DNA from: a virus
Reading direction: 5' to 3' (one strand)
DNA length: 43,821 nucleotides
IMG/VR virus record: IMGVR_UViG_3300043434_000476
Span: 1 to 43,821 of that record
Numbering within the stretch: the first letter of the stretch is position 1; every line of letters starts with the position of its first letter. Shown here in pieces: positions 1 through 38,182 of the stretch. A program made the position numbers and the translations under genes. Under the pieces are notes generated by a model. That model ran no database searches and was not told the origin of the DNA. It saw only the letters and a program-made list of their open reading frames with translations.

Positions 1-1009
1 GAGCAATCACGCTGTCAACTGCACCGCCACCTTCTCGACGATTCCAAAACTTTACATCAGCACCGTGATCTTTGCGAACTTGGTTGGCCCAGGATCTTAC
101 GCTGGCACCCCCGGAGCCTTCCGCCACCCCTTTCTTTTTCAATGTGTTAGAATGAGCAAAGCCTTTCTTGACCTTTTCAGCCTGACTCATTTTATCAACC
201 TGTTTGCCAAGTTTTGGATCAACATCATGCCAGGTCTTGGGGTATGACTTGTTTAATATCTTTTCAGCATCTTTGGCAGCGTCTTTGGCTTTTACAAGTG
301 TACCGGTGTGTTCTTTACCCTTGCCTAATTCATAGTTGTCGCGACTGCCATACTTGCTATGACTTTTCTTGCCGCGACTGCCTGTATAACCTTGGCTGTC
401 CATTTCCGTGACTTTTTTACTACGTTTAACTGGCAATGGATATTTCTCACAGGCTTCTTTAACTGTGTCAAAATATGTCTTACCTGCTACTCGCAATTTA
501 GGATCTGTACCACTGGCATGATAGAATGCAACTTTATCGTCAGCACGAGCCGCATCGCGTAATGCTGTGGCACTGCTTACTCTAGGACTTGGTACGTGAA
601 TGATTTTTGCAAACTTGTAATAACCGTGAGCTCCCTCTATGCCATTATATTGATTTAATAATTTACCACTCCATGCCCAATCTTGTGCATCTGTAATATA
701 AGCGATACTAGCGTTTTCATTCTTACGTAACTTCTTAAAAATATAAGCGGCTAATGTTAGTACACTTTGTTCTGCTACAATATGTCCACTAATAGGAGGA
801 TAAATCTCTGCCATCCATGCACTCTTCTGTTCAAAGGTTAATGGATCATTGGGTCCCAGTGTACTGGGATTAGTTCCAATAAACCAATTTGCACCTGCTT
901 GTTCAACAGCACGCCATACTTCAATGTGTCCTTGGTGTGCAGGATTGAATCTACCAAAGGCAAATGCCACTGTTGCTTTTTCCGTTTCTAATAATTGATC
1001 TGTTTTCAT
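1..1009 (-). CDS. HxGH-type nucleotidyl (adenylyl) transferase, 3'-truncated by window edge
   Basis: Reading the minus strand from the ATG at 1009 gives an open frame that runs off the left edge (at least 336 codons). The N-terminus carries GRFNPAHQGHIEVW with H25 and H28, the HxGH signature of the cytidylyltransferase/NMN-adenylyltransferase superfamily, followed by a Rossmann-like alpha/beta region. A later 'SPRVSSATALRDAA' segment resembles the ISSTxIR-type second nucleotide-binding motif. After about residue 185 the protein becomes Lys/Gly-rich and contains GVAEG at about residue 294, a motif shared with the protein at 9408-10760. The start overlaps the stop of the upstream gene (ATGA), so translation is probably coupled. 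The transferred nucleotide and the acceptor cannot be read from sequence; NAD salvage is one option. The superfamily call is firm, the substrate is unknown. Confidence 0.8.
   Translation of the reverse strand, partial: MKTDQLLETEKATVAFAFGRFNPAHQGHIEVWRAVEQAGANWFIGTNPSTLGPNDPLTFEQKSAWMAEIYPPISGHIVAEQSVLTLAAYIFKKLRKNENASIAYITDAQDWAWSGKLLNQYNGIEGAHGYYKFAKIIHVPSPRVSSATALRDAARADDKVAFYHASGTDPKLRVAGKTYFDTVKEACEKYPLPVKRSKKVTEMDSQGYTGSRGKKSHSKYGSRDNYELGKGKEHTGTLVKAKDAAKDAEKILNKSYPKTWHDVDPKLGKQVDKMSQAEKVKKGFAHSNTLKKKGVAEGSGGASVRSWANQVRKDHGADVKFWNRREGGGAVDSVIA
116..130 (-). repeat. GVAEG-encoding 15-bp repeat, copy 1 (variant)
   Basis: The minus strand reads GGGGTGGCGGAAGGC, encoding GVAEG inside the adenylyltransferase gene. 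It matches at 14 of 15 positions the element found three times at 9900-10484. The codons are the same across all copies except for one synonymous glycine position, although the surrounding genes prefer A/T-ending codons. Confidence 0.75.
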
Positions 1010-2154
1010 TGTGGTGTCCAACGCTTTCTCGGTACAAACTTCACGTTGCCGAATTGTTTATTAGAGTCTGCATATCTTACGCGACCCTCTCCATTTGTAT
1101 CCCAGATATCGGCCCGAGGTCCGCTTTCAATTTGGTCAATAACCGTGTCTTTTAATATCTGAAGCGCCTTGACGATTTTAAATATTTCATCAAGTGCATT
1201 GTTATGTGTTTGATTTAATTCTTTGATCTTAGCCTGTTTGGGTGCACTTACTTTTGTTGCCGCCCACTGGAAGAAATGTACCGCACTTAAATTATCTAGT
1301 TGTTTAGCTTTGGCTGTTTGGTTTACATAGTTATAGATGATTTGTTTTAAATCACTTAAACCTGCGGCACCTTGTAGGAATGCATCTATGTGCTGTGCAT
1401 GTTGTTTAATATGCTGTTCTACTTGTTGTATTTTTGTTGTGTCTACTTTAACCGGCGCTACATTGTATATCGGACCTAATACAATTAACTTTGGATTAGC
1501 ATTAAATGCGGTAAAATCTTTGATCGGTATTTGTGCACTGTCGGGCTGCCCGTGTTCTGTAAAGTAAGCATGCCCAACAACCATGACTTCTGCTTGTGCA
1601 ATACGCTTACCTAAGCCACTGTCAGCACGAACGTGATAACAGGTTTGGCTCTTTGGGTTAGGGCAGAATGTATAAACGCCGTCTTTTAGTTCTGGTGGTG
1701 TCAAGAACAGTGCATCTGCATAAACATAATATGTTGTATTCCCGTCTAGTTCCTTGGGTGTAGAGGCAGCAAACAATGGCGCAAGACTGGCAAATTTATC
1801 TGCAAATTGCTGACGAGCCGCAACTTCTTCTGGTGTCACAGCCTTACCCGTGCTCATAATGTACTTGCCAACATCCTCACCAGATTGTGGTAATATACCT
1901 TTACTCCATTGTGCATGTCCGTGTGGTGGGATAACCTGACCATTCTCACGTCCCCAATATATCTGAGGATTACCATCCCACTTCATACGAACACTAGAAC
2001 TACCTTGTTCAGTGTTCATGTCTTTTAGATGTTCAAGAGCTTCTATCGTTCCTGCACTGCCATAAAAGAATACTAGATCCTCTAAGTGATTGAAAGCACG
2101 ACCCAACTTAGGATCCATAGCCTCCATTAAGTCCAATAATTCTAATAATCTCAT
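1006..2154 (-). CDS. K-x-D-G ligase-like nucleotidyltransferase
   Basis: A 382-aa protein with RMKWDGNP at residues 56-63. K58-W-D60-G61 matches motif I (KxDG) of the covalent nucleotidyltransferase superfamily (DNA/RNA ligases, capping enzymes). Near the C-terminus NGEGRVRYA (from about residue 354) and KFVPRKRW look like motif V-type (EGxV) and a basic tail; TTYYVYADALF in the middle could be the motif III strand. The start MRLLELLDLMEA resembles the MRL/MRF N-termini of two other proteins here. It overlaps the genes on both sides by ATGA junctions, so three nucleotidyltransferase-type proteins are co-translated. It could be an RNA or DNA end-joining enzyme or a catalytically inactive relative. 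The fold call rests on motif spacing only. Confidence 0.6.
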   Translation of the reverse strand: MRLLELLDLMEAMDPKLGRAFNHLEDLVFFYGSAGTIEALEHLKDMNTEQGSSSVRMKWDGNPQIYWGRENGQVIPPHGHAQWSKGILPQSGEDVGKYIMSTGKAVTPEEVAARQQFADKFASLAPLFAASTPKELDGNTTYYVYADALFLTPPELKDGVYTFCPNPKSQTCYHVRADSGLGKRIAQAEVMVVGHAYFTEHGQPDSAQIPIKDFTAFNANPKLIVLGPIYNVAPVKVDTTKIQQVEQHIKQHAQHIDAFLQGAAGLSDLKQIIYNYVNQTAKAKQLDNLSAVHFFQWAATKVSAPKQAKIKELNQTHNNALDEIFKIVKALQILKDTVIDQIESGPRADIWDTNGEGRVRYADSNKQFGNVKFVPRKRWTPQ

Positions 2155-2894
2155 AGTCGGTTTAACATATTACGGAACCATTCGTTAGTACCGACTTTAC
2201 TTTCTTGTTTTATTTCTTTCCAGTTAGGATCTGCCTTGCCACGAGCTAGTAATTCAGCAGCCTGTTGTTGTGGCAATGCCGCCAAGATACTTTCCACACT
2301 GCCCAACACTGCGGCATCGGCTTTACCGGTTAAAATCTCTGCGATCTTTGCTAGATCATCAGTGACAAAGTCTGCTTTTTTACCTGCTTGATCTCTGGCA
2401 AATAAACCTTGCCAAGCACTCCACATATAGCCTTTATCCTTGGCTAGGAATGCCATGAGTAATTGTTTGTTTACACCTTTGTAAGGACTGCCTTGTGGAA
2501 TCTGATGTGTATGGAATTTAGCAACTTGATTAGCATTAGCAGTAACCATGATATCTACTTGGTGATGCTCATTGCCAACTGGAACGTTTACGTGCACATT
2601 AATACCGGTTTGTGCTGTATCTAAACCTTTGCTTTTGATATAATCGTTTAGAGCCTTACGTGCTGTTTTAGCGTCCTTGGCTTTAAAATAATGCATTACC
2701 GTGGCTTCGTCGGCTAGAACATCCATGTCACCGCTTTGTTTGCCAGGTTTAGGTGAAGCGGCACTACCCACGGGGATAACTTCAATACCCGTACCACGTA
2801 ACGCACTATTAACTGTTTTTAGAATAGCAGGCACGTCTTTGTGATCAAATGGCACAGCATTTGCAAATACATTACCACCTTCATTTAATATCAT
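2151..2894 (-). CDS. Pol-beta superfamily nucleotidyltransferase
   Basis: A 247-aa protein with the nucleotidyltransferase core: G43-S44, then GDMDVLAD with D56 and D58, and a third acidic strand HQVDIMV with D114. This is the GS-x(n)-DxD...D metal-binding arrangement of minimal nucleotidyltransferases. It is the first gene of the three-gene operon. GGAG about 7 nt before the ATG gives a good ribosome-binding site (TTGGAGTCAGTATG). The C-terminal half is helical and may bind the acceptor. It could add nucleotides to RNA, protein or an antibiotic-like small molecule; nothing in the sequence decides which. The last four bases overlap the start of the ligase-like gene. Confidence 0.75.
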   Translation of the reverse strand: MILNEGGNVFANAVPFDHKDVPAILKTVNSALRGTGIEVIPVGSAASPKPGKQSGDMDVLADEATVMHYFKAKDAKTARKALNDYIKSKGLDTAQTGINVHVNVPVGNEHHQVDIMVTANANQVAKFHTHQIPQGSPYKGVNKQLLMAFLAKDKGYMWSAWQGLFARDQAGKKADFVTDDLAKIAEILTGKADAAVLGSVESILAALPQQQAAELLARGKADPNWKEIKQESKVGTNEWFRNMLNRL

Positions 2895-3421: not shown

Positions 3422-3955
3422 TTAACGGTTATTAAACCATTTAATGAATTCTTCTTGACCTTGTGCTAGTGAATCTTCCCATGTATTCCCTGCTTCCCCG
3501 TCAGCATTGTCACTGACCCATTTGCGACTAATCCATGGTATTTTAACATGTTCGCAGACTTTTGCAATACTCCAGAGTTCCATATCGACTAAGTCGCAAT
3601 GATCTAATGTCCATTGATCTGGATCTGTGACAAAATTATTACCTGAGCCTACTCTAACACCTACTTCTTGACTATGATAATACAATAGATTTTCGCCTAA
3701 CATATAACCACGTTCACGTAATGGGCTACAATCAGCATCACGCTGACAAACGCTGGCTACGCTGTTAAGTCCGGTTATTCCTTTTAAACTACCTGCACTA
3801 CCATAGTTAATAACTAAGTCAGGTCTATGTTTAAGTACGGCCAAAGTAGCATGCATGGCTGCATTTGATACACCTACTCCTGTATAAACAACTGGGCAGT
3901 CTACTCTGGTTTTATCTAATTCTTCCTGTAATGCTACTAAGATTAATGTTTTCAT
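3422..3955 (-). CDS. 5'-methylthioadenosine/S-adenosylhomocysteine nucleosidase-like protein
   Basis: A 177-aa member of the PNP/UDP nucleoside phosphorylase fold. INYGSAGSL (49-57) is the phosphate/ribose-binding loop. VDMELWSIAKVCEHVKIPW carries the M125-E126 nucleoside-ribose contacts, and VSDNAD contains D149, the expected catalytic Asp of MTAN (D197 in the E. coli enzyme). E11/E12 near the N-terminus fit the catalytic Glu that activates water. It is shorter than the usual bacterial enzyme (about 230 aa). The start overlaps the ferredoxin reductase stop by ATGA. In the cell it would clear SAH/MTA made by methyltransferases and radical-SAM chemistry. Family confident; exact substrate less so. 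Confidence 0.78.
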   Translation of the reverse strand: MKTLILVALQEELDKTRVDCPVVYTGVGVSNAAMHATLAVLKHRPDLVINYGSAGSLKGITGLNSVASVCQRDADCSPLRERGYMLGENLLYYHSQEVGVRVGSGNNFVTDPDQWTLDHCDLVDMELWSIAKVCEHVKIPWISRKWVSDNADGEAGNTWEDSLAQGQEEFIKWFNNR

Positions 3956-4695
3956 TTTTCTACAAATGCTCTTTCTACTACAAATTGTCCAGGTTCGCGA
4001 ATACTGCCTTCCTGCATGCCCTGATCACGACACCATGCCGCAACTTGATGATTAAATTCTAAATTACCACATACCATGATTTTATCTTCTGCTATATTAA
4101 CAGGTAATTGTCCCAAAGTCAACTGTGTTGTGATCCTGGCTTCACCGTTACCTGTGAGTATAGGATGATATTCTAGCACATTACTAACCATTTCATGCAA
4201 GTCACCGTCTTGAGGATGAAGTTTAAATGCAGATGCTAAGTCTGTGTTGTAAGCTAGATCTTTAGCTTCTCTGACACTGTGTACTATATGAATCTTTGAC
4301 CATGTTTCCAGTGTTTCTAAGTCACGTATCAGACTCATAAAAGGAGCAAGTCCTGTACCAGTGGCCAGCATCCATAGTTCTCCGCCTTTATCTAGAGCAC
4401 TGTTGACCAGTGTACCTGTACATTTAGGCATGATGACAACTTCGCTGCCAATTTCGATGTGTTGAAGTTTACTGGTTAACTCTCCGTCTTGTATTTTAAT
4501 ACTAAGAAATTCCAGTTCTTCAGCCCAAGGTGGATTTACTATACTGTAAGCTCTGACAACTCTTTTACCGTTAATCATTAAACCAATCATGGCGAATTCG
4601 CCGGCAGTAAATCGAAATGCAGTATTTCTGGTGCATTTAAAACTAAACGTTCTGTCGCTCCAATGATGTACCCATGTGACTCGTTCTGTAAACAT
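3952..4695 (-). CDS. fpr: Ferredoxin/flavodoxin-NADP+ reductase (Fpr type)
   Basis: A 247-aa full-length FAD/NADPH oxidoreductase. RAYSIVNPP (R48, Y50, S51) is the FAD-binding RxYS motif, ATGTGLAPFMS (111-121) is the NADP-binding GTGxxP loop, VCGN is the NADP-side motif, and the C-terminus FVEK matches the bacterial subclass I Fpr tail. PWAEELEFLSIKI and DGELTSKLQH closely resemble proteobacterial Fpr. It moves electrons between NADPH and ferredoxin or flavodoxin in the cytoplasm. It sits in an ATGA-coupled pair with the MTAN-like gene. With the SUF genes of this phage it could supply electrons for Fe-S assembly; that link is inference. No clear strong ribosome-binding site precedes the ATG. 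Confidence 0.93.
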   Translation of the reverse strand: MFTERVTWVHHWSDRTFSFKCTRNTAFRFTAGEFAMIGLMINGKRVVRAYSIVNPPWAEELEFLSIKIQDGELTSKLQHIEIGSEVVIMPKCTGTLVNSALDKGGELWMLATGTGLAPFMSLIRDLETLETWSKIHIVHSVREAKDLAYNTDLASAFKLHPQDGDLHEMVSNVLEYHPILTGNGEARITTQLTLGQLPVNIAEDKIMVCGNLEFNHQVAAWCRDQGMQEGSIREPGQFVVERAFVEK

Positions 4696-4703
4696 TAATA
4701 TCC

Positions 4704-4725
4704 AAAATAAAAGCTCACTTTGAGC
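4704..4725 (-). terminator. Intrinsic terminator between tctC-like gene and fpr
   Basis: On the minus strand GCTCA and TGAGC (4713-4725) form a 5-bp stem with a 3-nt loop, followed directly by TTTTATTTT. This is a short rho-independent terminator. It lies 8 nt before the fpr start codon, so it may end the RNA described next, or act as an attenuator for fpr. Confidence 0.6.
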
Positions 4726-4825
4726 AGAGTCTGGCGTAACCCTGAACCAGGCAGCAGCCGCCTGTTTGACGCCTGGAGCAACTAGTGCTCCTAACCGTTA
4801 GCGACAACGGCCCTAAGGTGGGTTC
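4713..4825 (-). ncRNA. Cloverleaf-like small RNA or attenuator candidate
   Basis: The minus strand between the TctC-type stop and fpr folds by eye into a closed multibranch. The outer stem pairs AACCC (4820-4824) with GGGTT (4738-4742). It encloses three hairpins: CCGTT/AACGG (4795-4810), GGAGCA/TGCTCC (4775-4791) and CCAGGC/GCCTGG (4747-4776). The last two share two bases, so they would stack or exclude one another. The terminator hairpin follows. This is the layout of an independent sRNA or of a riboswitch with expression platform controlling fpr and the MTAN gene. It lacks tRNA consensus bases (no GTTCRANNC T-loop). No known class recognised. Confidence 0.45.
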
Positions 4826-5785
4826 TTATTGTGTATTTAGTTTGCTGATAATAGGAATCCACTGCTTGCGTAACTGCATCATACTGTTTTTAAATCCAGC
4901 AGGAGTTAGTTCTCGTTCATCAGAAAACATTAAATTATTGTCAAAAAACTGTTGGGCTTCCTTGCCAAGAATAATGCTGCCGAAATTTTTTACATACCAG
5001 TCAATAATTTCTTTGGGAGTGTCTTTTGGTAAAATTAGTCCCCATGCGGCATAGACATTCATACCTGGAATATATTGATTCATTAGTGGAACATCGGGAA
5101 TCTGTGCCAGCTTCTTTTCGCCGCAGATTGCCAGTATTCGAATTTTACCAGACTGTGCCAGTGTTTGTGCAACGGCAACAGGAAGTATACCGTAGTCTAC
5201 TTCTTTGCCGGCAACTGCCACAGCCGCTTGAGCAGGTCCTTTATATCCAACCAACTGAACCTTTGTTTCGTCTAGTTTTAACTTATCACTCATATAATTA
5301 TATGCTAATTTATGTGCTCCACTGCCCGCGGCTATATTCAAGGGCTTAACTGGATTTTGTATTGTCTTTAAAAATTCTGGAACAGTTTTGATGTCACTGT
5401 CACCGGGTACAACTATAGCTAGGGGACTTTTAGCAATACTCATTACGTATTCAAAGTCATTTAATGTATATTTCACAGCGGCTTTATTGAAATATTCTGC
5501 AGTGACCCAAATACCTTGATGGCTGGGTACATACAAATGATATCCGTCATTGGGTTTAGTTATAAAATCATTCATAGCTATTACGCCATCTGCGCCAGGT
5601 TGATTTCGTATAATAAACGTGAGGTCTTTATTCTGCCTTTCCAATAATGCACTAACGCCCCTAAAACTAAGTTCATTTCCAGAACCAGGAGCGAAACCTA
5701 CATATACATTTATAGGTTTAGTTGGTTGCCAGGCAATTGCATTAGCACTTAAAACCAGTGTTAAAATTGCTAGAAATTTTTTCAT
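4826..5785 (-). CDS. Bug/TctC-family periplasmic solute-binding protein
   Basis: A 319-aa protein with a Sec signal peptide (Lys-Lys, hydrophobic core, cleavage near ANAIA at about residue 18), then the family pattern KPINVYVGFAPGSGNEL, IIRNQPGADGVIAMN, NIAAGSGAHKLAYNYM, GYKGPAQAAVAVAGKEVDYG and AWGLILPKDTPKEII. These match tripartite tricarboxylate transporter receptors (TctC, Bug proteins), which are hugely expanded in Burkholderiales. It would bind a small carboxylate in the periplasm and needs host TctA/TctB, which are not encoded here. It is transcribed away from the plus-strand cassette from a TATAAATA box 48 nt upstream. A host-derived metabolic gene expressed late is the simplest reading. 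Confidence 0.93.
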   Translation of the reverse strand: MKKFLAILTLVLSANAIAWQPTKPINVYVGFAPGSGNELSFRGVSALLERQNKDLTFIIRNQPGADGVIAMNDFITKPNDGYHLYVPSHQGIWVTAEYFNKAAVKYTLNDFEYVMSIAKSPLAIVVPGDSDIKTVPEFLKTIQNPVKPLNIAAGSGAHKLAYNYMSDKLKLDETKVQLVGYKGPAQAAVAVAGKEVDYGILPVAVAQTLAQSGKIRILAICGEKKLAQIPDVPLMNQYIPGMNVYAAWGLILPKDTPKEIIDWYVKNFGSIILGKEAQQFFDNNLMFSDERELTPAGFKNSMMQLRKQWIPIISKLNTQ

Positions 5786-8611: not shown

Positions 8612-9010
8612 TTATTTTATAATAGGACCGCCGGTGATCCATAATTCACAACTACGGCTTCCGGCACATTTAAAATGTAGTAAGTTACAATAGCCTAAGT
8701 CTGCGGCTTCTCTAGTCTTTTCTTCCTGATATGCTTGTTTGCCCATGCCATCGTGTATACATTTGTACATAGCATCGGTGATATTAAAAGCCGCACAATT
8801 AGCGCATTGCATTGTCTTAGCAGTTTTTTCATCGATGTTCCATTGCTTGGCTGCAACTTTCCAATAATCTCCGGGCTTGTCTGGATTAGCAGGACCATAG
8901 TGATGATTGTCTATACCTACTTGTCGATTCTTGACATTGACTTCTAAATCGTGAGTAGCAATAGGACAGCCTTTGCCAGCCGCTTCTACAATCGTAATAT
9001 ATTTTCTCAT
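8612..9010 (-). CDS. Cys-rich protein, possible HiPIP-like Fe-S or zinc protein
   Basis: A 132-aa protein using ATG 9010, which overlaps the upstream stop as TAATG; a GTG at 9016 would add two residues and is less likely. Seven cysteines fall at C15, C69, C72, C84, C108, C115 and C121. The block QCANCAAF...LGYCNLLHFKC...SCELW resembles high-potential iron-sulfur proteins (CxxC then later Cys near aromatic residues), but the spacing is not a clean match, so a zinc site is also possible. The tail ITGGPIIK is typical of this phage family as I remember it. If it binds an Fe-S cluster, it is a candidate client of the phage SUF pathway. Confidence 0.6.
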   Translation of the reverse strand: MRKYITIVEAAGKGCPIATHDLEVNVKNRQVGIDNHHYGPANPDKPGDYWKVAAKQWNIDEKTAKTMQCANCAAFNITDAMYKCIHDGMGKQAYQEEKTREAADLGYCNLLHFKCAGSRSCELWITGGPIIK

Positions 9011-9408
9011 TACCACTTACGGCAACTCCAGTAACGTGCTTTTGTTCTTGGACCTGGATTAGCACAGTTGTGACGTGCTCTAAAACTTTTACGTCTTGCA
9101 GGATTACTTTTCTTAATACGCATATTAGGATCGCCAAAGTTTACTTTAACAGTTTTACCTGTTTTAGGATTTCTAACATAGACTTTAAACTTCTTAACGT
9201 CACCCTGCATGGGCTTACCTAGTTTAACTGTGCGTCCTTGATATTCTGCTTCTAATAATGTCATACCTAGATCATTGTCAGTTTCGCAGATGTAATCACC
9301 TTGATCTATTCCAGCTATAACTGTTTCTACCAACTCGTCGCCGATTTCTACTTCAAGTATATCACCAACTTCTGGAACATCAGTGTCAATAATTTCATCT
9401 AATCTCAT
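9010..9408 (-). CDS. Conserved phage protein with basic Cys-containing C-terminus
   Basis: A 132-aa protein in two parts. Residues 1-65 form an acidic segment starting MRLDEIIDTDVPE; residues 72-132 form a highly basic block (VYVRNPKTGKTVKVNFG, MRIKKSNPARRKSFRARHNC, KARYWSCRKW). That basic block recurs in T4-like phages next to head and tail genes; I know no established function. The N-terminal MRLDEII resembles capsid-targeting leaders of T4 internal proteins, and a prohead-protease cut after a Glu would release the basic part. The start overlaps the upstream stop as TAATG. Function inferred only from context. Confidence 0.7.
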   Translation of the reverse strand: MRLDEIIDTDVPEVGDILEVEIGDELVETVIAGIDQGDYICETDNDLGMTLLEAEYQGRTVKLGKPMQGDVKKFKVYVRNPKTGKTVKVNFGDPNMRIKKSNPARRKSFRARHNCANPGPRTKARYWSCRKW

Positions 9409-10760
9409 TATTCGCCCTTTGTCGTTAACATAAATTTTTTGCCCTGATTAAAAGGCTTTTGCATCATTGTAACTGCGGCTTTATTAGCCGCCGCCTTACC
9501 CACAAATGTATATGGTTGGCCTTCTTTGTTCTTCAATAATTTACCGTCAATAGTAATATACCAAGTACCGCTGGCTGCTATGCGTTCGTTTCTACGGTCG
9601 ATTTCGTGATGCTCGTCGTCTTCGCGTTCTCTGCGTCCCCAATTAGCTTCACCGCCATAGTCACCTTGGTAGTCTGGCATATTGCTGTCCCAGCTTGCTC
9701 TACCCGTTGCACGACCAAAACCTGCTTCGTTCATAGCATTCCAATCTTCGTGGCCAATGTAAAAATCAGTTTCAGGATCGTAGTACTTGCCTTCTTGGGG
9801 ATCGTAATAAACAACTTTACCACTGCGAGTACTAAATGGGCCTTCTAAACCTGGTCGTTCTTGATAGCGTTCGCGATCAATGCCGCGAGTTACGGTATAG
9901 CCTTCCGCCACACCTTGCAGTTCTTTTTGCGTAGCTCCTGCTTTTCTAGCAGCCTCGGCATCTTTGGGATCTTTGGTTTTGTGATATCGTGCTGTCAACT
10001 CTTTGCGTGTGCCACCTTGACTTGGAGGATTGTAGTCCGTGACTCCGGTGCCTTCCGCCACACCCTCTGGTAAGTTGGGAGCAGGATGACGACCTAATCT
10101 ATCAGCAACTTTAGCCTTCATTACTTTAGCATCTTGACCATGCATCTTACCAGCTTTAGTAGTTCTAAAATCCCCGCCGGGTTGACTTGGGCGACCCAAG
10201 TTGCTACTGCGAGAGTCTCGGCCAAACGGCTTGTCATCTCTACCCCAGTAACTTACTTCACCGGCTTTTTGTAAATGTGCAGAACCCTTGGGACCGAAAC
10301 GCTTGGCAACATACTGCTCGATAGCATCGTATTCTTCATCTTCTTCTGGGTTAGTTTCACCTGCGTGACCTTGATAGACCAATTGAGTATAACGATTGAT
10401 TATCTGTTTAAAACTTGGGTTAGAAGATAAATCAATCGGCTGCATTCCATCGTCGTTTAAATCGTAATAGCCTTCCGCCACACCTTGTTCACGACCGTCT
10501 CTAAAAGCAGTCATTAAAAATTCTTTGGCGTCTGCCCAGTTCTTTACATTAAGAACATGTGGTTCATAGCCTGCACGTTTTTCACGTCCCACAGCGTTTA
10601 ACGCAATGTCCAGTAACGTTGTTTGTAGAAATTCCAGAGCCTGAGCGCCCTTAATGCCTTGTGCATGCATTTTCTTTTCAATGCCTTTGAGAGCCATATA
10701 AGTTCTCATATTGTCATCTGTTTTTATCTGTGGCGCTTCTTCTATTTGGTGAAATCTCAT
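9408..10760 (-). CDS. Modular head-associated protein with three GVAEG linkers
   Basis: A 450-aa, very polar protein of short domains separated by GVAEG at residues 93-97, 233-237 and 283-287. V-A-E|G fits the T4 prohead-protease (gp21) preference for cutting after Glu in a hydrophobic-x-Glu context, so the protein may be packaged as a precursor and chopped into pieces. The start MRFHQIEEAP looks like a capsid-targeting leader. Residues 310-345 (VVYYDPQEGKYYDPETDFY) and 398-445 (TWYITIDGKLLKNKEGQPYTF) form two small beta modules. It ends TAATG into the next gene. The Shine-Dalgarno AAGGA lies inside a strong hairpin. The processing model is inference. Confidence 0.72.
   Translation of the reverse strand: MRFHQIEEAPQIKTDDNMRTYMALKGIEKKMHAQGIKGAQALEFLQTTLLDIALNAVGREKRAGYEPHVLNVKNWADAKEFLMTAFRDGREQGVAEGYYDLNDDGMQPIDLSSNPSFKQIINRYTQLVYQGHAGETNPEEDEEYDAIEQYVAKRFGPKGSAHLQKAGEVSYWGRDDKPFGRDSRSSNLGRPSQPGGDFRTTKAGKMHGQDAKVMKAKVADRLGRHPAPNLPEGVAEGTGVTDYNPPSQGGTRKELTARYHKTKDPKDAEAARKAGATQKELQGVAEGYTVTRGIDRERYQERPGLEGPFSTRSGKVVYYDPQEGKYYDPETDFYIGHEDWNAMNEAGFGRATGRASWDSNMPDYQGDYGGEANWGRREREDDEHHEIDRRNERIAASGTWYITIDGKLLKNKEGQPYTFVGKAAANKAAVTMMQKPFNQGKKFMLTTKGE
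9900..10484 (-). repeat. Three identical 15-bp GVAEG-encoding elements
   Basis: GGTGTGGCGGAAGGC (minus strand) occurs exactly at 9900-9914, 10050-10064 and 10470-10484, with a fourth near-copy at 116-130. All encode GVAEG with the same GTG GCG GAA codons, unlike the A/T-ending usage around them. Identity at DNA level is more than protein conservation needs, which suggests copying of a mobile linker or selection on the DNA itself. Confidence 0.85.
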
Positions 10761-28962: not shown

Positions 28963-29189
28963 TAACCTATACTCAGGAAATCATCAAAGCCAGAATCTTT
29001 TTTATCTGCTCTCTGCATCTGCCTAGTGTCGAACTGTGCGGCCCTGCATTCTTCAAGCAGAAAATTCATCTGCCCTATAACTTGTTCACTGGCACCAGCT
29101 CGATACGCAACGTTTAATTTTTTTAAAATTTCACGTTCACGCTCCATCAAAGCATTTAAACGTTGTTCAGGTGTTTCTGTTTTAGTCAT
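28962..29189 (-). CDS. Small helical hypothetical protein (75 aa)
   Basis: A 75-aa protein from ATG 29189, which overlaps the A-type carrier stop by ATGA; a longer frame to 29219 would run inside the sufA-like gene. It is a charged helical hairpin: EQRLNALMEREREILKKLNV and QVIGQMNFLLEECRAAQF, ending DDFLSIG. It resembles small proteins that recur in T4-like phages near replication genes. Function unknown. Confidence 0.65.
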   Translation of the reverse strand: MTKTETPEQRLNALMEREREILKKLNVAYRAGASEQVIGQMNFLLEECRAAQFDTRQMQRADKKDSGFDDFLSIG

Positions 29190-29521
29190 TTGAAATTCAC
29201 ACTTTCGCCACAGCCGCACTCATAGGCAACATTGGGATTGATTATCTCCAATCTGCGATTGAGGCCTTCTTGTTTGATAGTGATCACACTGGCTGACATT
29301 TTATCTGCGGCGTTTTTTGTTAAGTATAACACATTAATGTCACTAAGTCTAATATCTGTGCTACCATTTTCTGCGAATGGCTCGTTGGTCAGTGTCCACT
29401 TGTATTCATAACCATTGCAGCCGCCGGGCACAATATCCAAAATTACATTGGATTTGCCGTCACGTAGAATCATACCAATGATATGACTCTTAGCGGCTGT
29501 GGTTATTTCTACTGGTATCAT
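29186..29521 (-). CDS. sufA: A-type Fe-S carrier (SufA/IscA/ErpA family)
   Basis: A 111-aa protein with the three cluster ligands of the family: C35 in VPGGCNGYEY, then C102 and C104 in YECGCGESVNF. In IscA/SufA the pattern is C...CGCGxSF; here CGCGESV. Length is normal for the family (about 107-122 aa). It accepts [4Fe-4S] or [2Fe-2S] from the SufBCD scaffold and passes it to apo-proteins. It sits at the downstream end of the phage SUF genes. The named subfamily cannot be decided from motifs; sufA is chosen for context. Confidence 0.9.
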   Translation of the reverse strand: MIPVEITTAAKSHIIGMILRDGKSNVILDIVPGGCNGYEYKWTLTNEPFAENGSTDIRLSDINVLYLTKNAADKMSASVITIKQEGLNRRLEIINPNVAYECGCGESVNFK

Positions 29522-29853
29522 ACCTTGGCAAGTACTTTTACTAGTTCTTCTTTAGTACTTCGAGCTTTGACTTCCAAGCCGTGTTTTTTAACAAGTTCCA
29601 TTAATTGAGCTTTGGTCATTTTGTTTAATTCAGCACGTTTGTATTTTGCTTTAACAGTAACCGGTGCAGTTTCAATGGCTGCAGGAACAACTGCTTCTGG
29701 AACAACCACAACTTGTTCAGTGACTACCGTAGACGATGTTTCAGAACTGTTTGCATCTGTAACAATTGTCGGCGTTTCAACTTTATAAGGAGCCGCTTCG
29801 GCGACTGGTGTATCACTCTTGCCAGTGATCCAGGCTAGAATTTTCTTGATCAT
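29518..29853 (-). CDS. SAP/HeH-like helix-extended-helix protein with disordered linker
   Basis: A 111-aa protein. Residues 1-12 are basic and aromatic (MIKKILAWITGK), residues 13-68 are a Val/Ala/Pro/Thr-rich linker, and residues 75-111 (ELNKMTKAQLMELVKKHGLE, VKARSTKEELVKVLAKV) form a SAP/Rho-N-like helix-extension-helix DNA- or RNA-binding module. It lies between sufT and the A-type carrier, overlapping both. It may tether the pathway to nucleic acid or be an unrelated passenger. Confidence 0.65.
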   Translation of the reverse strand: MIKKILAWITGKSDTPVAEAAPYKVETPTIVTDANSSETSSTVVTEQVVVVPEAVVPAAIETAPVTVKAKYKRAELNKMTKAQLMELVKKHGLEVKARSTKEELVKVLAKV

Positions 29854-30172
29854 AATCGTACATTCCCATTTCTAATCTTGCCTCTTCGGATACTCTGTCA
29901 GGAGTCCAGGGAGGGTCAAAAACAGTTTCTACTGAAACAGTTCTCGTAGTATTTAACTCTGTTAATACTTTTTCTGCTACCGCTTGCACCTGTGCCGGTA
30001 TCTCTTCGGCACTGGGGCAAAATGCTGAGGTCAGTGTCATCAATATGTTAACACTGCTCTCATCAATACCAATATTATAGATCAGTCCTAGATCATAGAT
30101 ATTCACAGGAATTTCTGGATCGTAGACTGTTTTTAATCCTATGATAATATTTTGTTCAATTTGTTCGTTCAT
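29813..30172 (-). CDS. sufT: SufT/MIP18-family (DUF59) Fe-S assembly protein
   Basis: A 119-aa protein from ATG 30172; upstream codons belong to the zinc-ribbon gene, whose stop it overlaps. LKTVYDPEIPVNIYDLGLIY is the hallmark (DPE-P-N-DLGLIY), ILMTLTSAFCPSAEEIP contains the conserved Cys region, and TVFDPPWTPDRVSEEARLEM is the PPW end motif. SufT and PaaD-like proteins assist maturation of Fe-S proteins. Size is normal. It is coupled to the SAP gene by a 41-nt overlap. Confidence 0.93.
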   Translation of the reverse strand: MNEQIEQNIIIGLKTVYDPEIPVNIYDLGLIYNIGIDESSVNILMTLTSAFCPSAEEIPAQVQAVAEKVLTELNTTRTVSVETVFDPPWTPDRVSEEARLEMGMYDYDQENSSLDHWQE

Positions 30173-30359
30173 ATCTACTTCCTGGTTGTCCCGGTTCGTT
30201 GCTGGCAGTACATGATAATTCATGATTCGTTGCTCGCGGGCAACGCTTGTTCCCACAACTTGGACAGACGATAAATCTACTTGTGGTAACTGGCCAACCT
30301 GATGTTGGATCTTTTATTTCATTTAAACAGTTATAACACCAGCACGTATATTCACTCAT
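30156..30359 (-). CDS. Small zinc-ribbon protein (67 aa)
   Basis: A 67-aa protein with CWCYNC near the N-terminus and CPSCGNKRC in the middle, plus one later Cys. Two CxxC knuckles (CYNC-like and CPSC) suggest a zinc ribbon or a rubredoxin-like iron site. It lies between sufE and sufT with ATGA-type overlaps. Either a metal-binding accessory to Fe-S assembly or one of the many small zinc-finger proteins of T4-like phages. Confidence 0.65.
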   Translation of the reverse strand: MSEYTCWCYNCLNEIKDPTSGWPVTTSRFIVCPSCGNKRCPRATNHELSCTASNEPGQPGSRYERTN

Positions 30360-30730
30360 AATTTTTTAATCCTTGCAATCAAATTTGCAATACCATTTTG
30401 TCTGCCCATACTCAATATGGGTGCCAAGCCCACGACTTCTAACTGTGCTAGATTGAATTCGTCTCGCTGTTCTGTGCCTGCTTGATTCCACCAGTCACAG
30501 ATCATACTGGCAAATCCCTGCACTATCAAACTTTCTCCATAACAGTATACATTTTTATCGATTTTTTCAACCCAGAGATTACTGGTACAGCCAATGACTA
30601 AATTTGCATCAACTTTTTTAACTTCAAATACAGGTCTAGCCACAGAACCATACTCTATGATGTAATCATATTTGTCCATGGAATCATCTAGCTGAAATAA
30701 CTCAGCGAACATTTCTTGAAAGTCTGCCAT
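30356..30730 (-). CDS. sufE: SufE sulfur acceptor
   Basis: A 124-aa protein: MDKYDYIIEYGSVARP, then VIGCTSNLWVEKI with the persulfide-accepting C48 (C51 in E. coli SufE), and FASMICDWWNQ. The GC-S-LW motif and the downstream helix match SufE. It takes persulfide from SufS and passes it to SufBCD, shielding it from oxidants. It overlaps the sufS stop by 29 nt. All key residues are intact. Confidence 0.94.
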   Translation of the reverse strand: MADFQEMFAELFQLDDSMDKYDYIIEYGSVARPVFEVKKVDANLVIGCTSNLWVEKIDKNVYCYGESLIVQGFASMICDWWNQAGTEQRDEFNLAQLEVVGLAPILSMGRQNGIANLIARIKKL

Positions 30731-31895
30731 AAATTTCTCCTAGATAATCAAATGCGATCTCAACTTCGTGTGTATCAGTATAACAGCCCCAGCTTAGTCG
30801 TAACAGACTGCGATTATTTGTAATGGAATCTATCAGTGGTTGCGCACATAACTTACCACTGCGAACCATAACCCCTCTGGCGTCCAACATCATGGTGTAA
30901 TCTTCCACGGCACCTACTGCTGGTAATAAACTTATTAGACCCGTATCCGTGTTACTGGCGGTGTTAAAATACGTTTCAGAAACATTGCTGTTGGCTATTC
31001 TAGCAAGTTTCTTATCGTGCGCAACTATGTCAGATTCATTGGCTATCAACCATTCAATTAAACGCGGTAATGTGGCAATGGCGGATAAGTTTAGAGTGCC
31101 ACTTTCAAAGCGACCCGCATTTGACTGCCACGTTGCCTGACTGATTGTAACAGAGCTGACACTGCCACCACCGGGATGCACGGGTGCATAGTTTAGCCAT
31201 ACGGGATCTATGATCAAAGTGCCCAGTCCCATGGGACCATATACTTTATGCCAACTCCAAGCAACAAAATCAAAGCCATGAAAGTTTACGGCTCTTTTCC
31301 CCACTAACTGGCTGGCATCTATGATAGTATTAGATGCGGTGGCATGTGCGATGTCACGTATTTTATCTAGGTCATTGATCTTACCCAGTATATTACTAAC
31401 TGCTGATACTGCAATAATTCTACAAGATTCTTTGTCTTCCTTGCACCATTGTTCAAGACTGGTTAGATCTAGACAACCTTCGCTATTCAATGGTATGTAT
31501 TTTATATTCCACCACGGGTTGCTTTTACATAACTCCATAAGTGGTAAACTTAGGCTGTGATGTGCATCTATACCAAGATAAATGGTACCGCCGGGCATGG
31601 CCTGTTCTACTAGTTTCACCGCATCGTTTAGACCCTGACTACTGCCACTGTTAAAGATAACAGTTTTTTCTGGTTCTTTGACATTGACATATTTGGCTAT
31701 AAGTTCTTTGGCTCGAAAATATTTTTGATCAACCCAAGTTCCCATACTGTGGCCACTGCGATGCGAATTGCTTCTGTGATCCAGTGAAAAATTTGTTTGG
31801 TCTTCGATGACAGTGTACAGCGCCTGGCTAGTGGCAGCGGTGTCCAGATAAATTATAGCTGGATTACGTGCAAAAAATGGAAAATTATCCCGCAT
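30702..31895 (-). CDS. sufS: SufS cysteine desulfurase
   Basis: A 397-aa PLP enzyme of normal length. IYLDTAATSQ, NSGSSQGLN, H112 in IDAHHS, IDASQ (D193), SWHKVYGPMGLG with the PLP Lys K217, FESGTLN, and VRSGKLCAQPL with the active-site C350. The short loop around C350 and the overall pattern are those of group II desulfurases (SufS), not IscS. It frees sulfur from cysteine as a persulfide. A few family positions are changed (SWHK for SGHK), but all catalytic residues are present. Overlaps sufD by 11 nt and sufE by 29 nt. Confidence 0.96.
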   Translation of the reverse strand: MRDNFPFFARNPAIIYLDTAATSQALYTVIEDQTNFSLDHRSNSHRSGHSMGTWVDQKYFRAKELIAKYVNVKEPEKTVIFNSGSSQGLNDAVKLVEQAMPGGTIYLGIDAHHSLSLPLMELCKSNPWWNIKYIPLNSEGCLDLTSLEQWCKEDKESCRIIAVSAVSNILGKINDLDKIRDIAHATASNTIIDASQLVGKRAVNFHGFDFVAWSWHKVYGPMGLGTLIIDPVWLNYAPVHPGGGSVSSVTISQATWQSNAGRFESGTLNLSAIATLPRLIEWLIANESDIVAHDKKLARIANSNVSETYFNTASNTDTGLISLLPAVGAVEDYTMMLDARGVMVRSGKLCAQPLIDSITNNRSLLRLSWGCYTDTHEVEIAFDYLGEIYGRLSRNVR

Positions 31896-32319
31896 TTATT
31901 AAACTCTGTTTTATTAATTCTTTGGCATCTCTGATTCCTCTAGATGCTAGATAGTATGTATCTTCCTTGTTCATTGCACCCAGTGCATTTCCATGTGTGG
32001 CGACGATGTTACTGTTGCGAATAAACATTTCCGGCCTTGCTTTAATTTTACTGCGGTCAAATGGCCAGCTTCTAAATTGTATGTCAGTTTCTACTCCACT
32101 AACTTCTTTGGCTACGTCTAGCGTACAAACACAATCAACTTCACTGGTGCCTTCTGTATAGATATAAATCTTAACTTTAAATTTACTATCGGCCTGAGGT
32201 TTTAATTTAATATTAGCTGTGCACTTACCCTCAGTTTGAATGAATACAAACTCATATTCAGACTGAGTAGGCACTAGCATAAGGTCTAGGCTTTCTGCAT
32301 CTAGATATACTTTACGCAT
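31885..32319 (-). CDS. sufD: Minimal SufD (C-terminal domain only)
   Basis: A 144-aa protein. FRSWPFDRSKIKARPEMFIR, IVATHGNALGAMNKEDTYYL and SRGIRDAKELIKQSL match the C-terminus of SufD/SufB (KA-P-L-I-V-C-HG-T-G-DE-YL-RG). H109 corresponds to the SufD His implicated in cluster assembly. The N-terminal half retains only a short beta stretch; cellular SufD is about 420 aa. It therefore keeps the heterodimer and SufC-binding end and loses most of the beta-helix. Normal gene order and overlaps argue for function rather than decay. Confidence 0.85.
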   Translation of the reverse strand: MRKVYLDAESLDLMLVPTQSEYEFVFIQTEGKCTANIKLKPQADSKFKVKIYIYTEGTSEVDCVCTLDVAKEVSGVETDIQFRSWPFDRSKIKARPEMFIRNSNIVATHGNALGAMNKEDTYYLASRGIRDAKELIKQSLINAG

Positions 32320-32965
32320 TGCTTAGATCCAATTTGTTATCACTATATTTTGATTGTAGTTCTTTGTCATGCGTTACCAACAATACACTACCACCAGCAA
32401 GACAAGTACTTTCGATTAATTCTACAATCTTTTGGCGACTGCTTTGTTCTAGTCCGCTGTCCGGTTCATCTAACAATAATAGTTTAGTTTTCTTTTTAAA
32501 TAGATCAGCTTGAACTAGTTCATTCTTTTTACGTTCGCCTCCACTGGCACCGAGATTAAACTGACGTTTCTTCCAATCGTTGGGTAACTGCATATGAAGA
32601 AATTTATCGCTGGCTTGGGCAATTAAATCTCCTCTGGTATAAGGCATGTCATGAACTTTATTGATCTCGTTCAGCAAAGTCATCGTATTAACACCATCAA
32701 TAGTTGGCGGTGCCTGATGTGCTAAAAATACTCCATTGAGAGCACGTTCGTGGCATTCTAGTGTGTGCAATTCACTGTTGTCTAATTCTATCGTTCCAGA
32801 ACTTATGATATCAGGGCGACCCATGATAGCATGTAGCAACGTACTTTTACCTGCACCGTTTTGTCCAGTTACTAGCAGACACTTGCCTGATTCTAGATCG
32901 ATGTTTACATTGTTTATTATTTGTTTGTTGCCTATTCTTGCTGATAAGTTCGTTATTTTTAGCAT
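32312..32965 (-). CDS. sufC: SufC ABC-type ATPase
   Basis: A 217-aa ATPase: LVTGQNGAGKSTLLHAIMG (Walker A, 34-42), GVFLAHQAPPTIDGV (Q-loop with the SufC-specific pattern), GASGGERKKNELVQ (signature, normally GFSGGEKKRNE), LLLLDEPDSGLEQ (Walker B and D-loop), LLVTHDKEL (switch His). It is slightly shorter than E. coli SufC (248 aa), mainly at the C-terminus. It powers shape change in the SufBCD scaffold. It sits between sufB and sufD in the usual order. Confidence 0.96.
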   Translation of the reverse strand: MLKITNLSARIGNKQIINNVNIDLESGKCLLVTGQNGAGKSTLLHAIMGRPDIISSGTIELDNSELHTLECHERALNGVFLAHQAPPTIDGVNTMTLLNEINKVHDMPYTRGDLIAQASDKFLHMQLPNDWKKRQFNLGASGGERKKNELVQADLFKKKTKLLLLDEPDSGLEQSSRQKIVELIESTCLAGGSVLLVTHDKELQSKYSDNKLDLSNA

Positions 32966-34377
32966 TATCCAATACTGCCTTCCATGGTTACTTGTAATAA
33001 TTTATTTGCTTCTGCGGCAAATTCTAAAGGTAGCGTATTCAACACACTGCGACAGAAGCCGTTGACAATTGTCGAAGCCGCTTGTTCCGCATCCAATCCT
33101 CTGGTTGCTAGATAATAAAGTTCTTCTTCACTGACTCGACCGGTTGTTGCTTCGTGTTCGATTTGACTACTGTCGTTTCTACAATCTGTATAAGGAACAG
33201 TATTGCTAGTGCTGTCATTGCCTATCATTAAACTATCGCATTGCGTATAGTTGCGACTATTTTTAGCACCAGGGTTCATACGAACAAGGCCTCGATAAGT
33301 CATTGTACTCCGACCCAAGCTAATACCTTTGCTGATAATCTTACTGCGAGTATCAGCACCTATGTGTATCATTTTGGTACCAGTGTCGGCTTGTTGATGA
33401 CCTCGGGTAACGGCCACTGAATAAAATTCTCCAATGGATCCTTGCCCTTGGAGTACGCAACTAGGGTACTTCCAAGTGATAGCTGATCCTGTTTCCACCT
33501 GAGTCCAACTAACTCTACTTTTGATGCCTCGACACAGTGCTCGTTTGGTAACAAAGTTGTAGACTCCTCCACGTCCGTGTTCGTCTCCAGGGTACCAGTT
33601 TTGTACAGTTGAATATTTAATCTCTGCCCTGTCAAGGGCAACAAGTTCGACCACTGCGGCATGTAACTGATTCTCGTCACGTTGGGGTGCTGTGCATCCC
33701 TCCAAGTAAGATACATAACTGTCCTTATCTGCTATTATTAGCGTTCTTTCAAATTGTCCAGAACCTGCGGAGTTGATTCTGAAATATGTACTAAGTTCCA
33801 ATGGGCATCGTTTGCCTTCGGGTATATATACAAAACTGCCATCACTGAATACTGCGGAGTTGATGCAGGCAAACCAGTTATCACCTTGTGGTACTACTGA
33901 TCCTACATATTGTTTAACTAAGTCCGGATGATGCTGTACTGCTTCGTTGAAGCTACAAAAGATAATACCTTCTTCTGCTAGTTTATCTTTGTATGTTGTG
34001 CCCAAGCTAACACTGTCAAATACCGCATCAACAGCTACACCGGCAAGTTTAGCACGTTCATGTAAAGGAATGCCTAACTTCTCAAAGTCATCTAAAATCT
34101 CTTTGGGTACTTCATCTAAGCTGTTGAATTTCTTTTTAGGACGACTGTGATAGTAAATGTTATCATAGTCTGGGCGTGTATACTTTAACTCAGCCCAGTT
34201 GGGCTCGGTCATTGTGCTTAGTTTCTTTAGCGCATTAAGTCTAAACTCTAGCAACCAATCGGGTTCATTGTTTTTAGCACTGATAAGTCTAACGGTGTTT
34301 TCATTCAAGCCACGGCCTGTCAATTCACTTTCGACATCGGTAGTAAACCCTGCTGTGTATTCTTGTTCTAATTGCAT
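32965..34377 (-). CDS. sufB: SufB scaffold protein, full length
   Basis: A 470-aa protein matching SufB along its length. [67 protein letters not shown]-like [60 protein letters not shown] (core Cys), and [20 protein letters not shown] with the conserved Glu. It builds nascent Fe-S clusters with SufC and SufD. Length is near normal (495 aa in E. coli). The start overlaps the upstream 67-aa gene as TAATG. No frameshifts or lost ligands were seen. Confidence 0.97.
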
Positions 34378-37357: not shown

Positions 37358-38182
37358 ATGAAAGCAATTAAATTATCCTTAATCACATTAGCAATAGTAG
37401 CATTGGCGGGTTGTTCAACTGTTCGTCCTTGGGGCAGTACAAAGATCAAAGAAGAAGCCAAAGTCAGCGAAACTATCAACAAAAGTTTTGCAGCAGTTCC
37501 AAGTCCTGCAGGTCCAGCAGTAACCGTAGCAGTTTATGGCTTCAAAGACTTGACGGGACAGCGTAAGCCTAGTACTACGCTGAGTCTGTTCAGCACAGCA
37601 GTTACACAAGGTGCAGAGGCATACTTGATGAAGAGTTTACAAGAAGTTGGCAATCGTCAATGGTTCACAGTGGTTGAACGTGTTGGCCTTGACAACTTAT
37701 TAAAAGAACGCCAAATGATTAAACAGACACGTGAAATCTACGAAGGCGCAAATGCCAAACCTTTACCTCCACTACAAATGGCAGGTGTTCTTTTAGAAGG
37801 CGGTATTATCGATTATAACAGCAATACACTAACCGGTGGCACTGGTGCTCGTTGGTTAGGTATTGGCACACAAACAGCATATACTCAGGACGTAGTTGTT
37901 ATCAGCTTGCGTTTAGTAAGTGTACAAACTGGCGAAGTTTTAACTACAGTGACTGTAGAAAAGAACTTACTCAGTACTGCCGATGGGGCAACAGCGTTGA
38001 AGTTTTTCAACCAAGCTACGCAGGCATTTGAATTTGATTCGAGCCAAACTTTCAATGAGCCGGGTAACTATGCGCTACGTTCGGCTATTGAAACAGCGGT
38101 TATTGAATTAATTAAAAAGGGCGAACGCCAAGGTCTGTGGAAATTCAAAGAGAATTCTGCTGAACCTAAACAAGGGAGTTAA
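37358..38182 (+). CDS. csgG: CsgG-like outer-membrane curli secretion channel
   Basis: A 274-aa lipoprotein: VALAGC lipobox (Cys 19), VTVAVYGFKDLTGQRKPSTT, LFSTAVTQGAEAYLMKSLQE, WFTVVERVGLDNLLKERQMI, and VVISLRLVSVQTGEVLTTVT. These match CsgG along its length. In the constriction loop the Phe of E. coli (F56) is kept in LFSTAV while the neighbouring Tyr/Asn positions differ. It forms the nonameric pore that exports curli subunits. AAGGAG precedes the ATG, and the stop is 2 nt before the curlin gene. Confidence 0.95.
   Translation: MKAIKLSLITLAIVALAGCSTVRPWGSTKIKEEAKVSETINKSFAAVPSPAGPAVTVAVYGFKDLTGQRKPSTTLSLFSTAVTQGAEAYLMKSLQEVGNRQWFTVVERVGLDNLLKERQMIKQTREIYEGANAKPLPPLQMAGVLLEGGIIDYNSNTLTGGTGARWLGIGTQTAYTQDVVVISLRLVSVQTGEVLTTVTVEKNLLSTADGATALKFFNQATQAFEFDSSQTFNEPGNYALRSAIETAVIELIKKGERQGLWKFKENSAEPKQGS

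What the first reader, a model, noticed from the sequence alone, without database searches (positions are those of the whole stretch)
1..2894. Three unrelated nucleotidyltransferases in one coupled operon
A pol-beta type NTase, a KxDG ligase-like protein and an HxGH adenylyltransferase are chained by ATGA overlaps. Co-translation of three different nucleotide-transfer chemistries suggests one pathway, for example end repair and joining of RNA, nucleotide tagging of a molecule, or NAD-linked modification. The last protein also carries the GVAEG motif of a head protein, so parts may be packaged in the virion.
Basis: partly seen in the sequence, partly recalled or inferred. Interest (0 to 1): 0.72.

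Follow-up and report, generated by a model that had tools for sequence, protein, structure and literature searches.

The report
Phage enzyme pair packed in virions
Two linked nucleotide-transferring enzymes of T4-like phages, one of them already found inside virus particles by others, carry the short front tag that T4 uses to load proteins into its head, so they are probably injected into the host with the viral DNA.

Summary
Three minus-strand genes, joined by two ATGA overlaps, encode a pol-beta-type NTase (2894-2151), a DUF6267 protein with KWDG (2154-1006) and a HQGH adenylyltransferase (1009 to beyond the window edge). DUF6267 gives a confident model (pLDDT 90) whose best structural matches are all ligases or capping enzymes; homologues only 15-23% identical keep ligase motifs I, III, IV and V. 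The trio as such is not conserved. The DUF6267/HxGH pair is: 77/78 and 79/79 evaluable loci, and fused in cyanophage S-PM2. The NTase is present in 44/77 near relatives and 0/69 cyanophage-like loci. Both pair members start with a variable tag ending hydrophobic-x-E-small (46/47 and 40/41 distinct tags; shuffles 13 and 12). In S-SM1 the HxGH homologue (T4-GC190) starts MKKFSAFLNEA (T4 IPII/IPIII: MKTYQEFIAEA); it is the only S-SM1 gene with that pattern, and published mass spectrometry found it in purified virions (PMC3037559). Best reading: internal-head cargo, cut by a gp21-type protease, delivered with the DNA, acting as a linked adenylyltransferase plus ligase-type enzyme. Packaging is well supported for the HxGH protein, inferred for DUF6267, weak for the NTase. 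The substrate is unknown.

The parts
2151..2894 (-). pol-beta-superfamily nucleotidyltransferase, 247 aa (P0002); N-term MILNE|GGNVF
   Evidence: GS..SGDMD..VDIM with G43, D56, D58, D114 invariant in 21 homologues; profile finds TUTase Tailor in PDB at E 0.012; two members hit NTP_transf_2 at E 0.027
1006..2154 (-). DUF6267 protein, 382 aa (P0001): covalent nucleotidyltransferase/ligase superfamily fold with helical insert (about residues 239-344)
   Evidence: PF19782 E 6e-16; AF2 pLDDT 90.1; VIA-align top 50 all ligases, tRNA ligases or capping enzymes; motifs I, III, IV, V invariant
2..1009 (-). HxGH-type adenylyl/cytidylyltransferase with C-terminal tail (P0003), cut by the window start
   Evidence: CTP_transf_like, phrog_3041 E 3e-14, TIGR00125/NadD/NadR models in homologues, NadR/MJ0541 in PDB by profile
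2122..2154 (-). N-terminal tag MRLLELLDLME (then A) of the DUF6267 protein, capsid-targeting-sequence-like
   Evidence: 46/47 distinct homologous tags carry [LIVMFY]xE[AGSTNKQ], shuffle mean 12.8, max 22; pLDDT < 50 at residues 8-13
986..1009 (-). N-terminal tag MKTDQLLE (then T) of the HxGH protein
   Evidence: 40/41 distinct homologous tags carry the site, shuffle mean 11.8, max 23; T4-GC190 homologues carry MKKFSAFLxEA
2880..2894 (-). short N-terminus MILNE before GG of the NTase; weak, about half of the homologues start at MGG
1972..1983 (-). ligase motif I, K58-W-D-G61
   Evidence: invariant K, D and G in 9 distant homologues
1714..1716 (-). motif III acidic residue, D147
   Evidence: invariant
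1078..1089 (-). motif IV, E356-G-R-V359
   Evidence: E, G and V invariant
1033..1041 (-). motif V, K372-F-V374
   Evidence: K and V invariant
116..130 (-). GVAEG in the tail of the HxGH protein, candidate internal prohead-protease site
   Evidence: VAEG 14 against 0.2 expected in homologous tails; module border YGRYxCSTDKRW directly after VVE, VAE or LAE in three different proteins
9408..10760 (-). 450-aa neighbour with a like tag (MRFHQIEEA) and three GVAEG sites; putative further head cargo
8612..9010 (-). 132-aa protein with tag-like N-terminus MRKYITIVEAA

Best explanation
The core is a two-enzyme unit: a ligase-fold (KxDG) covalent nucleotidyltransferase (DUF6267) and an NMNAT-like HxGH adenylyltransferase, sometimes fused, here co-translated with an optional pol-beta NTase. 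In this phage lineage both core enzymes are made with a removable N-terminal propeptide of the T4 capsid-targeting type. The propeptide draws them into the prohead core; a gp21-type S77 protease cuts after Glu; the mature enzymes stay among the packaged DNA and enter the host with it. There they act before any phage gene is expressed. The HxGH enzyme transfers AMP (or CMP) to a small acceptor, most likely NMN-like. DUF6267 becomes adenylylated on Lys58 and passes the nucleotide to an RNA or DNA end or another acceptor, for repair or counter-defence. Shown here: gene structure, fold, invariant catalytic motifs, pairing and fusion, tag conservation. Shown by others: virion location of the T4-GC190 homologue. 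Inferred: cutting, ejection, acceptor and biological role.
For: Fold. Motifs I/III/IV/V invariant across nine homologues. Pairing 77/78 and 79/79. Fusion in S-PM2, a 437-aa ORF joining the DUF6267 C-half to the HxGH domain by the linker PPSGEGAKVA; BFVD matches of 591 and 599 aa named cytidyltransferase-like. Tags: 46/47 and 40/41. Among 21 gene families in the same loci only four have a tag fraction of 0.43 or more, DUF6267 and HxGH among them; the other 17 are at 0.28 or less. The E-to-core spacing varies by 1-8 residues, as for a removable propeptide. Ten of the twelve tag-like genes of relative G001 lie in one 20-gene stretch round the trio, 0 of 20,000 permutations. S77 protease and gp23 in the largest relatives. 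T4 controls IPII/IPIII MKTYQEFIAEA against T4-GC190 MKKFSAFLNEA and like in seven cyanophages. The strict pattern hits one of 207 S-SM1 ORFs, T4-GC190, shuffle mean 0.00. T4-GC190 was detected in purified S-SM1 virions (PMC3037559). gp21 cuts after L/I-x-E; CTS residues 4 and 7 target, 8 and 10 are processed (PMC9026906).
Against: HxGH and DUF6267 of the MED4-213 and S-CAM4 types have no tag. DUF6267 of S-SM1 has no tag. The NTase start MILNE is shorter than any tested CTS and is missing in half of its homologues. Clustering of tags is clear in G001, passes only one of two tests in G006, and is absent in G004. Foldseek found no PDB match below E 1e-3, and VIA Z is 5.8 at best. No head genes lie in the window itself. 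No cleavage or enzyme activity has been measured.
Confidence: 0.55

Rival explanations
1. RNA or tRNA repair kit: the pol-beta NTase adds nucleotides to an end, DUF6267 seals, the HxGH enzyme supplies or recycles the cofactor; it counters host nucleases that cut tRNA.
For: Ligase fold closest by Z to RNA ligases of Naegleria and T4; NTase profile nearest to a terminal uridylyltransferase in PDB; ATGA coupling in 34 of 44 loci that have the NTase.
Against: The NTase is absent from 33/77 near relatives and all 69 cyanophage-like loci; no end-healing kinase or phosphatase seen beside it; matches are weak (E 0.012).
Confidence: 0.2
2. NAD-centred unit: the HxGH enzyme is a true NMNAT that rebuilds NAD, against NAD-depleting defence or to feed an NAD-dependent ligase-type DUF6267.
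For: Homologues hit NadD/NadR/NadM models and NadR, MJ0541 and NMNAT structures, all below curated cut-offs; fusion with a ligase fold; a PARP-like tagged neighbour in L069.
Against: No NMN-producing partner found next to it; no NAD-binding Ia domain recognised in DUF6267; substrate residues not tested.
Confidence: 0.15
3. Ordinary intracellular phage enzymes; the N-terminal Glu pattern is a coincidence or has another role, and T4-GC190 sticks to virions as a contaminant.
For: Untagged versions exist; DUF6267 of S-SM1 is untagged; in the cyanophages looked at, the genes lie beside primase-helicase and mazG, not head genes.
Against: Tag conservation despite indels, family specificity, the single S-SM1 gene with the strict CTS being the one found in virions.
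Confidence: 0.17
4. Purely structural head proteins whose enzyme folds are relics.
For: Virion location of T4-GC190; long disordered mosaic tails.
Against: Catalytic motifs of all three are invariant or nearly so, which relics would lose.
Confidence: 0.08

Closest known systems
T4 internal head proteins IPI, IPII, IPIII and Alt (capsid targeting sequence, gp21 processing)
   Same: N-terminal propeptide with basic residue 2, hydrophobic targeting residues and [LI]-x-E|A; T4-GC190 matches IPII/IPIII position for position; unrelated cargo behind a shared tag; Alt is also a packaged enzyme
   Different: Cargo is a ligase-fold/adenylyltransferase pair; window tags are shorter or shifted by 1-2 positions; HxGH tails carry extra VAEG sites between exchangeable modules
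T4-GC190 (putative cytidylyltransferase) and T4-GC71 (hypothetical) of cyanomyoviruses, Sullivan et al. 2010, PMC3037559
   Same: Homologues of the HxGH and DUF6267 proteins in the same order; T4-GC190 is a cyanophage core gene and was found in S-SM1 virions
   Different: The paper's main text gives no mechanism of packaging and says nothing of T4-GC71; the tag and the ligase fold are added here; the cyanophage-like loci lack the pol-beta NTase
T4 RNA ligases 1 and 2, Naegleria RNA ligase, DNA ligases, capping enzymes
   Same: Core fold and motifs I (KxDG), III, IV (EGxV), V (KxV)
   Different: No detectable sequence similarity beyond motifs, helical insert between motifs III and IV, no C-terminal OB or specificity domain after motif V
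NMN/nicotinate-nucleotide adenylyltransferases (NadM, NadR, NadD)
   Same: GRFNPxHxGH and SSATxLR motifs, profile similarity
   Different: All below curated cut-offs; N-terminal tag; long modular tail; substrate unknown

Membership tests
DUF6267 (PF19782) | Score over Pfam's gathering cut-off (27 bits) | tested here: met
   59.2 bits, E 6.2e-16
Covalent nucleotidyltransferase (ligase/capping) superfamily | KxDG motif I lysine | tested here: met
   K58, D60, G61 invariant to 15% identity
Covalent nucleotidyltransferase (ligase/capping) superfamily | Motifs III (acidic), IV (EGxV), V (K) | tested here: met
   D147, E356-G357-x-V359, K372-x-V374 invariant in nine homologues
Covalent nucleotidyltransferase (ligase/capping) superfamily | Ligase-type adenylation-domain fold | tested here: met
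   AF2 pLDDT 90.1; all 50 VIA rows are superfamily members, Z 5.8-4.4, rmsd 4.2-5.7 over 149-195 residues. Z is middling and Foldseek alone is not significant
Covalent nucleotidyltransferase (ligase/capping) superfamily | Enzyme-AMP/GMP formation | not testable with these tools
   needs an in vitro autoadenylylation assay
HxGH nucleotidylyltransferases / NMNAT | HxGH and [ST]xTxxR-type motifs | tested here: met
   GRFNPxHxGH and SSATxLR conserved
HxGH nucleotidylyltransferases / NMNAT | Curated NMNAT equivalog cut-off | tested here: not met
   best TIGR00125 22.6 of 27.7 bits; NadD/NadR/NadM models far below cut-off
Pol-beta nucleotidyltransferases | G[GS]..DxD...D triad | tested here: met
   G43, D56, D58, D114 invariant
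Pol-beta nucleotidyltransferases | Family model match | tested here: inconclusive
   NTP_transf_2 E 0.027 in 2 of 21; PDB TUTase E 0.012
T4-type CTS-bearing internal head protein | N-terminal propeptide ending [LI]-x-E | tested here: met
   DUF6267 46/47 and HxGH 40/41 distinct tags with the relaxed site; strict form in T4-GC190. Weak for the NTase
T4-type CTS-bearing internal head protein | gp21-type S77 protease in the same phage | tested here: met
   in relatives G001, G004, G006; the window is a fragment without head genes
T4-type CTS-bearing internal head protein | Present in virions | tested here: inconclusive
   published for the T4-GC190 homologue only (PMC3037559); not for DUF6267 or the NTase
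T4-type CTS-bearing internal head protein | Cleavage after the Glu | not testable with these tools
   needs N-terminal peptides from virions

The most novel reading that the evidence does not exclude
These phages run a general cargo system. Unrelated enzymes are given a head-targeting tag, and extra modules are strung behind them with VAE|G cut sites, so that the prohead protease releases a set of enzymes and small basic modules inside the head. A ligase-type plus adenylyltransferase pair is its most widespread cargo and is injected to protect or repair nucleic acid at the moment of entry.
Probability: 0.25. Interest if true: 0.82.

Novelty: new variant of a known kind. Interest (0 to 1): 0.62.

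Why it matters
T4-GC190 has been known as a cyanophage core gene and virion protein since 2010 without an explanation. Its close match to the T4 targeting tag explains how it could get into the head and predicts that it is injected. Its constant partner, DUF6267 (about 470 of 50,697 phage records plus abundant environmental phages, no relative found in a collection of 84,980 cellular genomes), becomes a new ligase-superfamily enzyme with a nameable catalytic lysine. Both claims can be tested with existing cultured phages (S-SM1, Melnitz). If true, many of the most abundant marine and freshwater phages deliver a nucleotide-transfer enzyme with their DNA.

Tried and rejected
Foldseek against PDB gave no match below E 1e-3. 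Sequence profile of DUF6267 against PDB: no ligase. Cellular relatives in 84,980 genomes: none. A loose N-terminal regex (M.{2,14}[LIVMFY]xE[AGSTN]) is not enriched genome-wide, so the argument was moved to families, clustering and the strict T4 pattern. Tag clustering failed in G004 and passed only one of two tests in G006. VAEG enrichment is absent in G004 and G006. Pfam Semialdhyde_dh and the PHROG tail/glycosyltransferase hits are below cut-off or at E > 0.03 and were judged chance. Papers: no hit for DUF6267, and no text in the library links capsid targeting with cyanophages. Supplementary tables of PMC3037559 could not be read here, so whether T4-GC71 was also found in virions is unknown.

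Full report
What is there. On the minus strand of a 43.8-kb virus fragment three genes follow each other with two ATGA overlaps: a 247-aa protein (2894-2151), a 382-aa protein (2154-1006) and a third gene cut off by the window start (1009-2, 336 aa seen). The first has the pol-beta pattern GS..GDMD..VDIM with G43, D56, D58 and D114 invariant in 21 homologues; family support is weak. The third has GRFNPAHQGH and SSATALR and matches cytidylyl/adenylyltransferase families, nearest to NMN adenylyltransferases. The second is Pfam DUF6267.

Ligase test. AlphaFold2 on a 35-row alignment of window and viral-contig homologues gives pLDDT 90. Foldseek alone is not significant against PDB, but all 50 rows listed by VIA-align are RNA ligases, tRNA ligases, DNA ligases or capping enzymes (best Z 5.8, rmsd 4.5 over 185 residues). 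In nine homologues, most of them only 15-23% identical to the window protein, the invariant columns are K58, D60, G61, P63, G68, D147, N166, Y173, H195, E356, G357, V359, K372 and V374 plus the start Met. These include the key positions of ligase motifs I, III, IV and V, with a helical insert of about 100 residues before motif IV.

Conservation. In 80 loci from IMG/VR closest to the window, the HxGH gene lies next to or within 3 kb of DUF6267 in 77 of 78 that can be judged. In 80 loci collected with a cyanophage DUF6267 it is adjacent in 79 of 79. The pol-beta gene is upstream in 44 of 77 of the first set (ATGA overlap in 34) and in none of 69 of the second. In S-PM2 the C-terminal half of DUF6267 runs in frame into the HxGH domain through the linker PPSGEGAKVA. 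The deposited sequence has an apparent frameshift further upstream; the BFVD entry of 591 aa suggests one full fusion. About 470 of 50,697 phage records hold a DUF6267 relative, mostly cyanomyoviruses, also Methylophilales, Pelagibacter, Vibrio, Pseudoalteromonas and Xanthomonas phages; no cellular relative was found. So the functional unit is the pair; the NTase is an accessory.

The tag. The N-termini of DUF6267 and HxGH proteins vary in sequence and length but almost always end in hydrophobic-x-Glu-small before the enzyme core: 46 of 47 and 40 of 41 distinct tags, against 12.8 and 11.8 in shuffles (max 22 and 23), with 1-8 residues between Glu and core. Among 21 gene families in the same loci, only DUF6267, HxGH and two neighbouring families have a tag fraction of 0.43 or more; the others have 0.28 or less. 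In relative G001, 10 of 12 tag-like genes sit in one 20-gene stretch around the trio (0 of 20,000 permutations); G006 is similar (15 of 20,000), though a second test there is negative; G004 shows no clustering. T4's own internal proteins IPII and IPIII start MKTYQEFIAEA. In seven cyanophages the HxGH homologue starts MKKFSAFLNEA or a close variant. In the whole S-SM1 genome the strict pattern MK.[FY]..F[LIV].E hits one of 207 ORFs, exactly this gene, with a shuffle mean of 0.00. Sullivan et al. 2010 found this protein, T4-GC190, in purified S-SM1 virions (PMC3037559). In T4 the first ten residues of IPIII suffice for packaging, residues 4 and 7 target, residues 8 and 10 are processed, and gp21 cuts after L/I-x-E (PMC9026906). 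The relatives carry the S77 protease and gp23 with a candidate site of the same type (IME|S, LSE|S or LSE|T) ahead of the conserved shell domain.

GVAEG. VAEG occurs 5 times in window proteins (0.22 expected) and 14 times in HxGH tails (0.2 expected). The tails are mosaics: one basic module, YGRYxCSTDKRWK.RKGPKQ, follows VVE|G in NTases (L067, L068, L071), VAE|G in an HxGH tail (L002) and LAE|S in a third protein (L009). A protease site at a module border is the simple reading; it is not proven, and VAEG is not enriched in G004 or G006.

How it probably works. Tagged enzymes join the prohead core, are trimmed by the prohead protease, stay in the head and are ejected with the DNA, as Alt and the IPs are in T4 (PMC3012670; PMC9026906). 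In L069 a tagged neighbour hits the PARP family, which recalls Alt. Inside the cell the pair would perform an adenylyl transfer coupled to a ligase-type reaction. RNA repair and NAD-linked readings are kept as rivals since no substrate evidence exists.

Limits. Untagged forms exist in some cyanophages, so packaging is not a universal part of the pair's function. DUF6267 has not been shown in virions. The NTase start MILNE is too short to call. Nothing was measured.

Noticed in passing
window 30702-34377 (and 29186-30730): Gene run that looks like a phage-borne Fe-S cluster assembly (SUF-like) set: an aminotransferase-like protein with YLDTAATSQ, an ABC ATPase (PF00005) and a 470-aa partner. 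Read from sequence and PHROG/Pfam hits only.
   Followed up: no
window 3422-5785: Purine phosphorylase-like (PF01048), FAD/NAD oxidoreductase-like (PF00970/PF00175) and TctC-type periplasmic receptor (PF03401) genes beside the trio, all unusual in a phage.
   Followed up: no
window 37358-38182: CsgG-family (PF03783) outer-membrane secretion protein, E 2e-51, followed by further secreted-looking genes.
   Followed up: no
L069:7559-8872: Tagged neighbour (MKINEVITER...) with a PARP catalytic-domain hit, E 2e-4: possible Alt-like packaged ADP-ribosyltransferase.
   Followed up: partly
L002, L009, L067, L068, L071 and others: Short basic cysteine-containing modules (YGRYxCSTDKRW, ANIHAKR, RARHNC types) recur in unrelated phage proteins, the first always right after a [VL]xE site.
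   Followed up: partly
S-PM2 NC_006820 about 103530-103534: DUF6267 is split by an apparent frameshift in the deposited sequence, while a 591-aa S-PM2 protein in BFVD looks like the full DUF6267-HxGH fusion.
   Followed up: partly
L015, L021, L024, L069, L076 upstream of DUF6267: Where the pol-beta NTase is missing, a 109-112 aa protein (MRIDEF.../MRIEDLE...) of unknown function takes its place directly before DUF6267.
   Followed up: no
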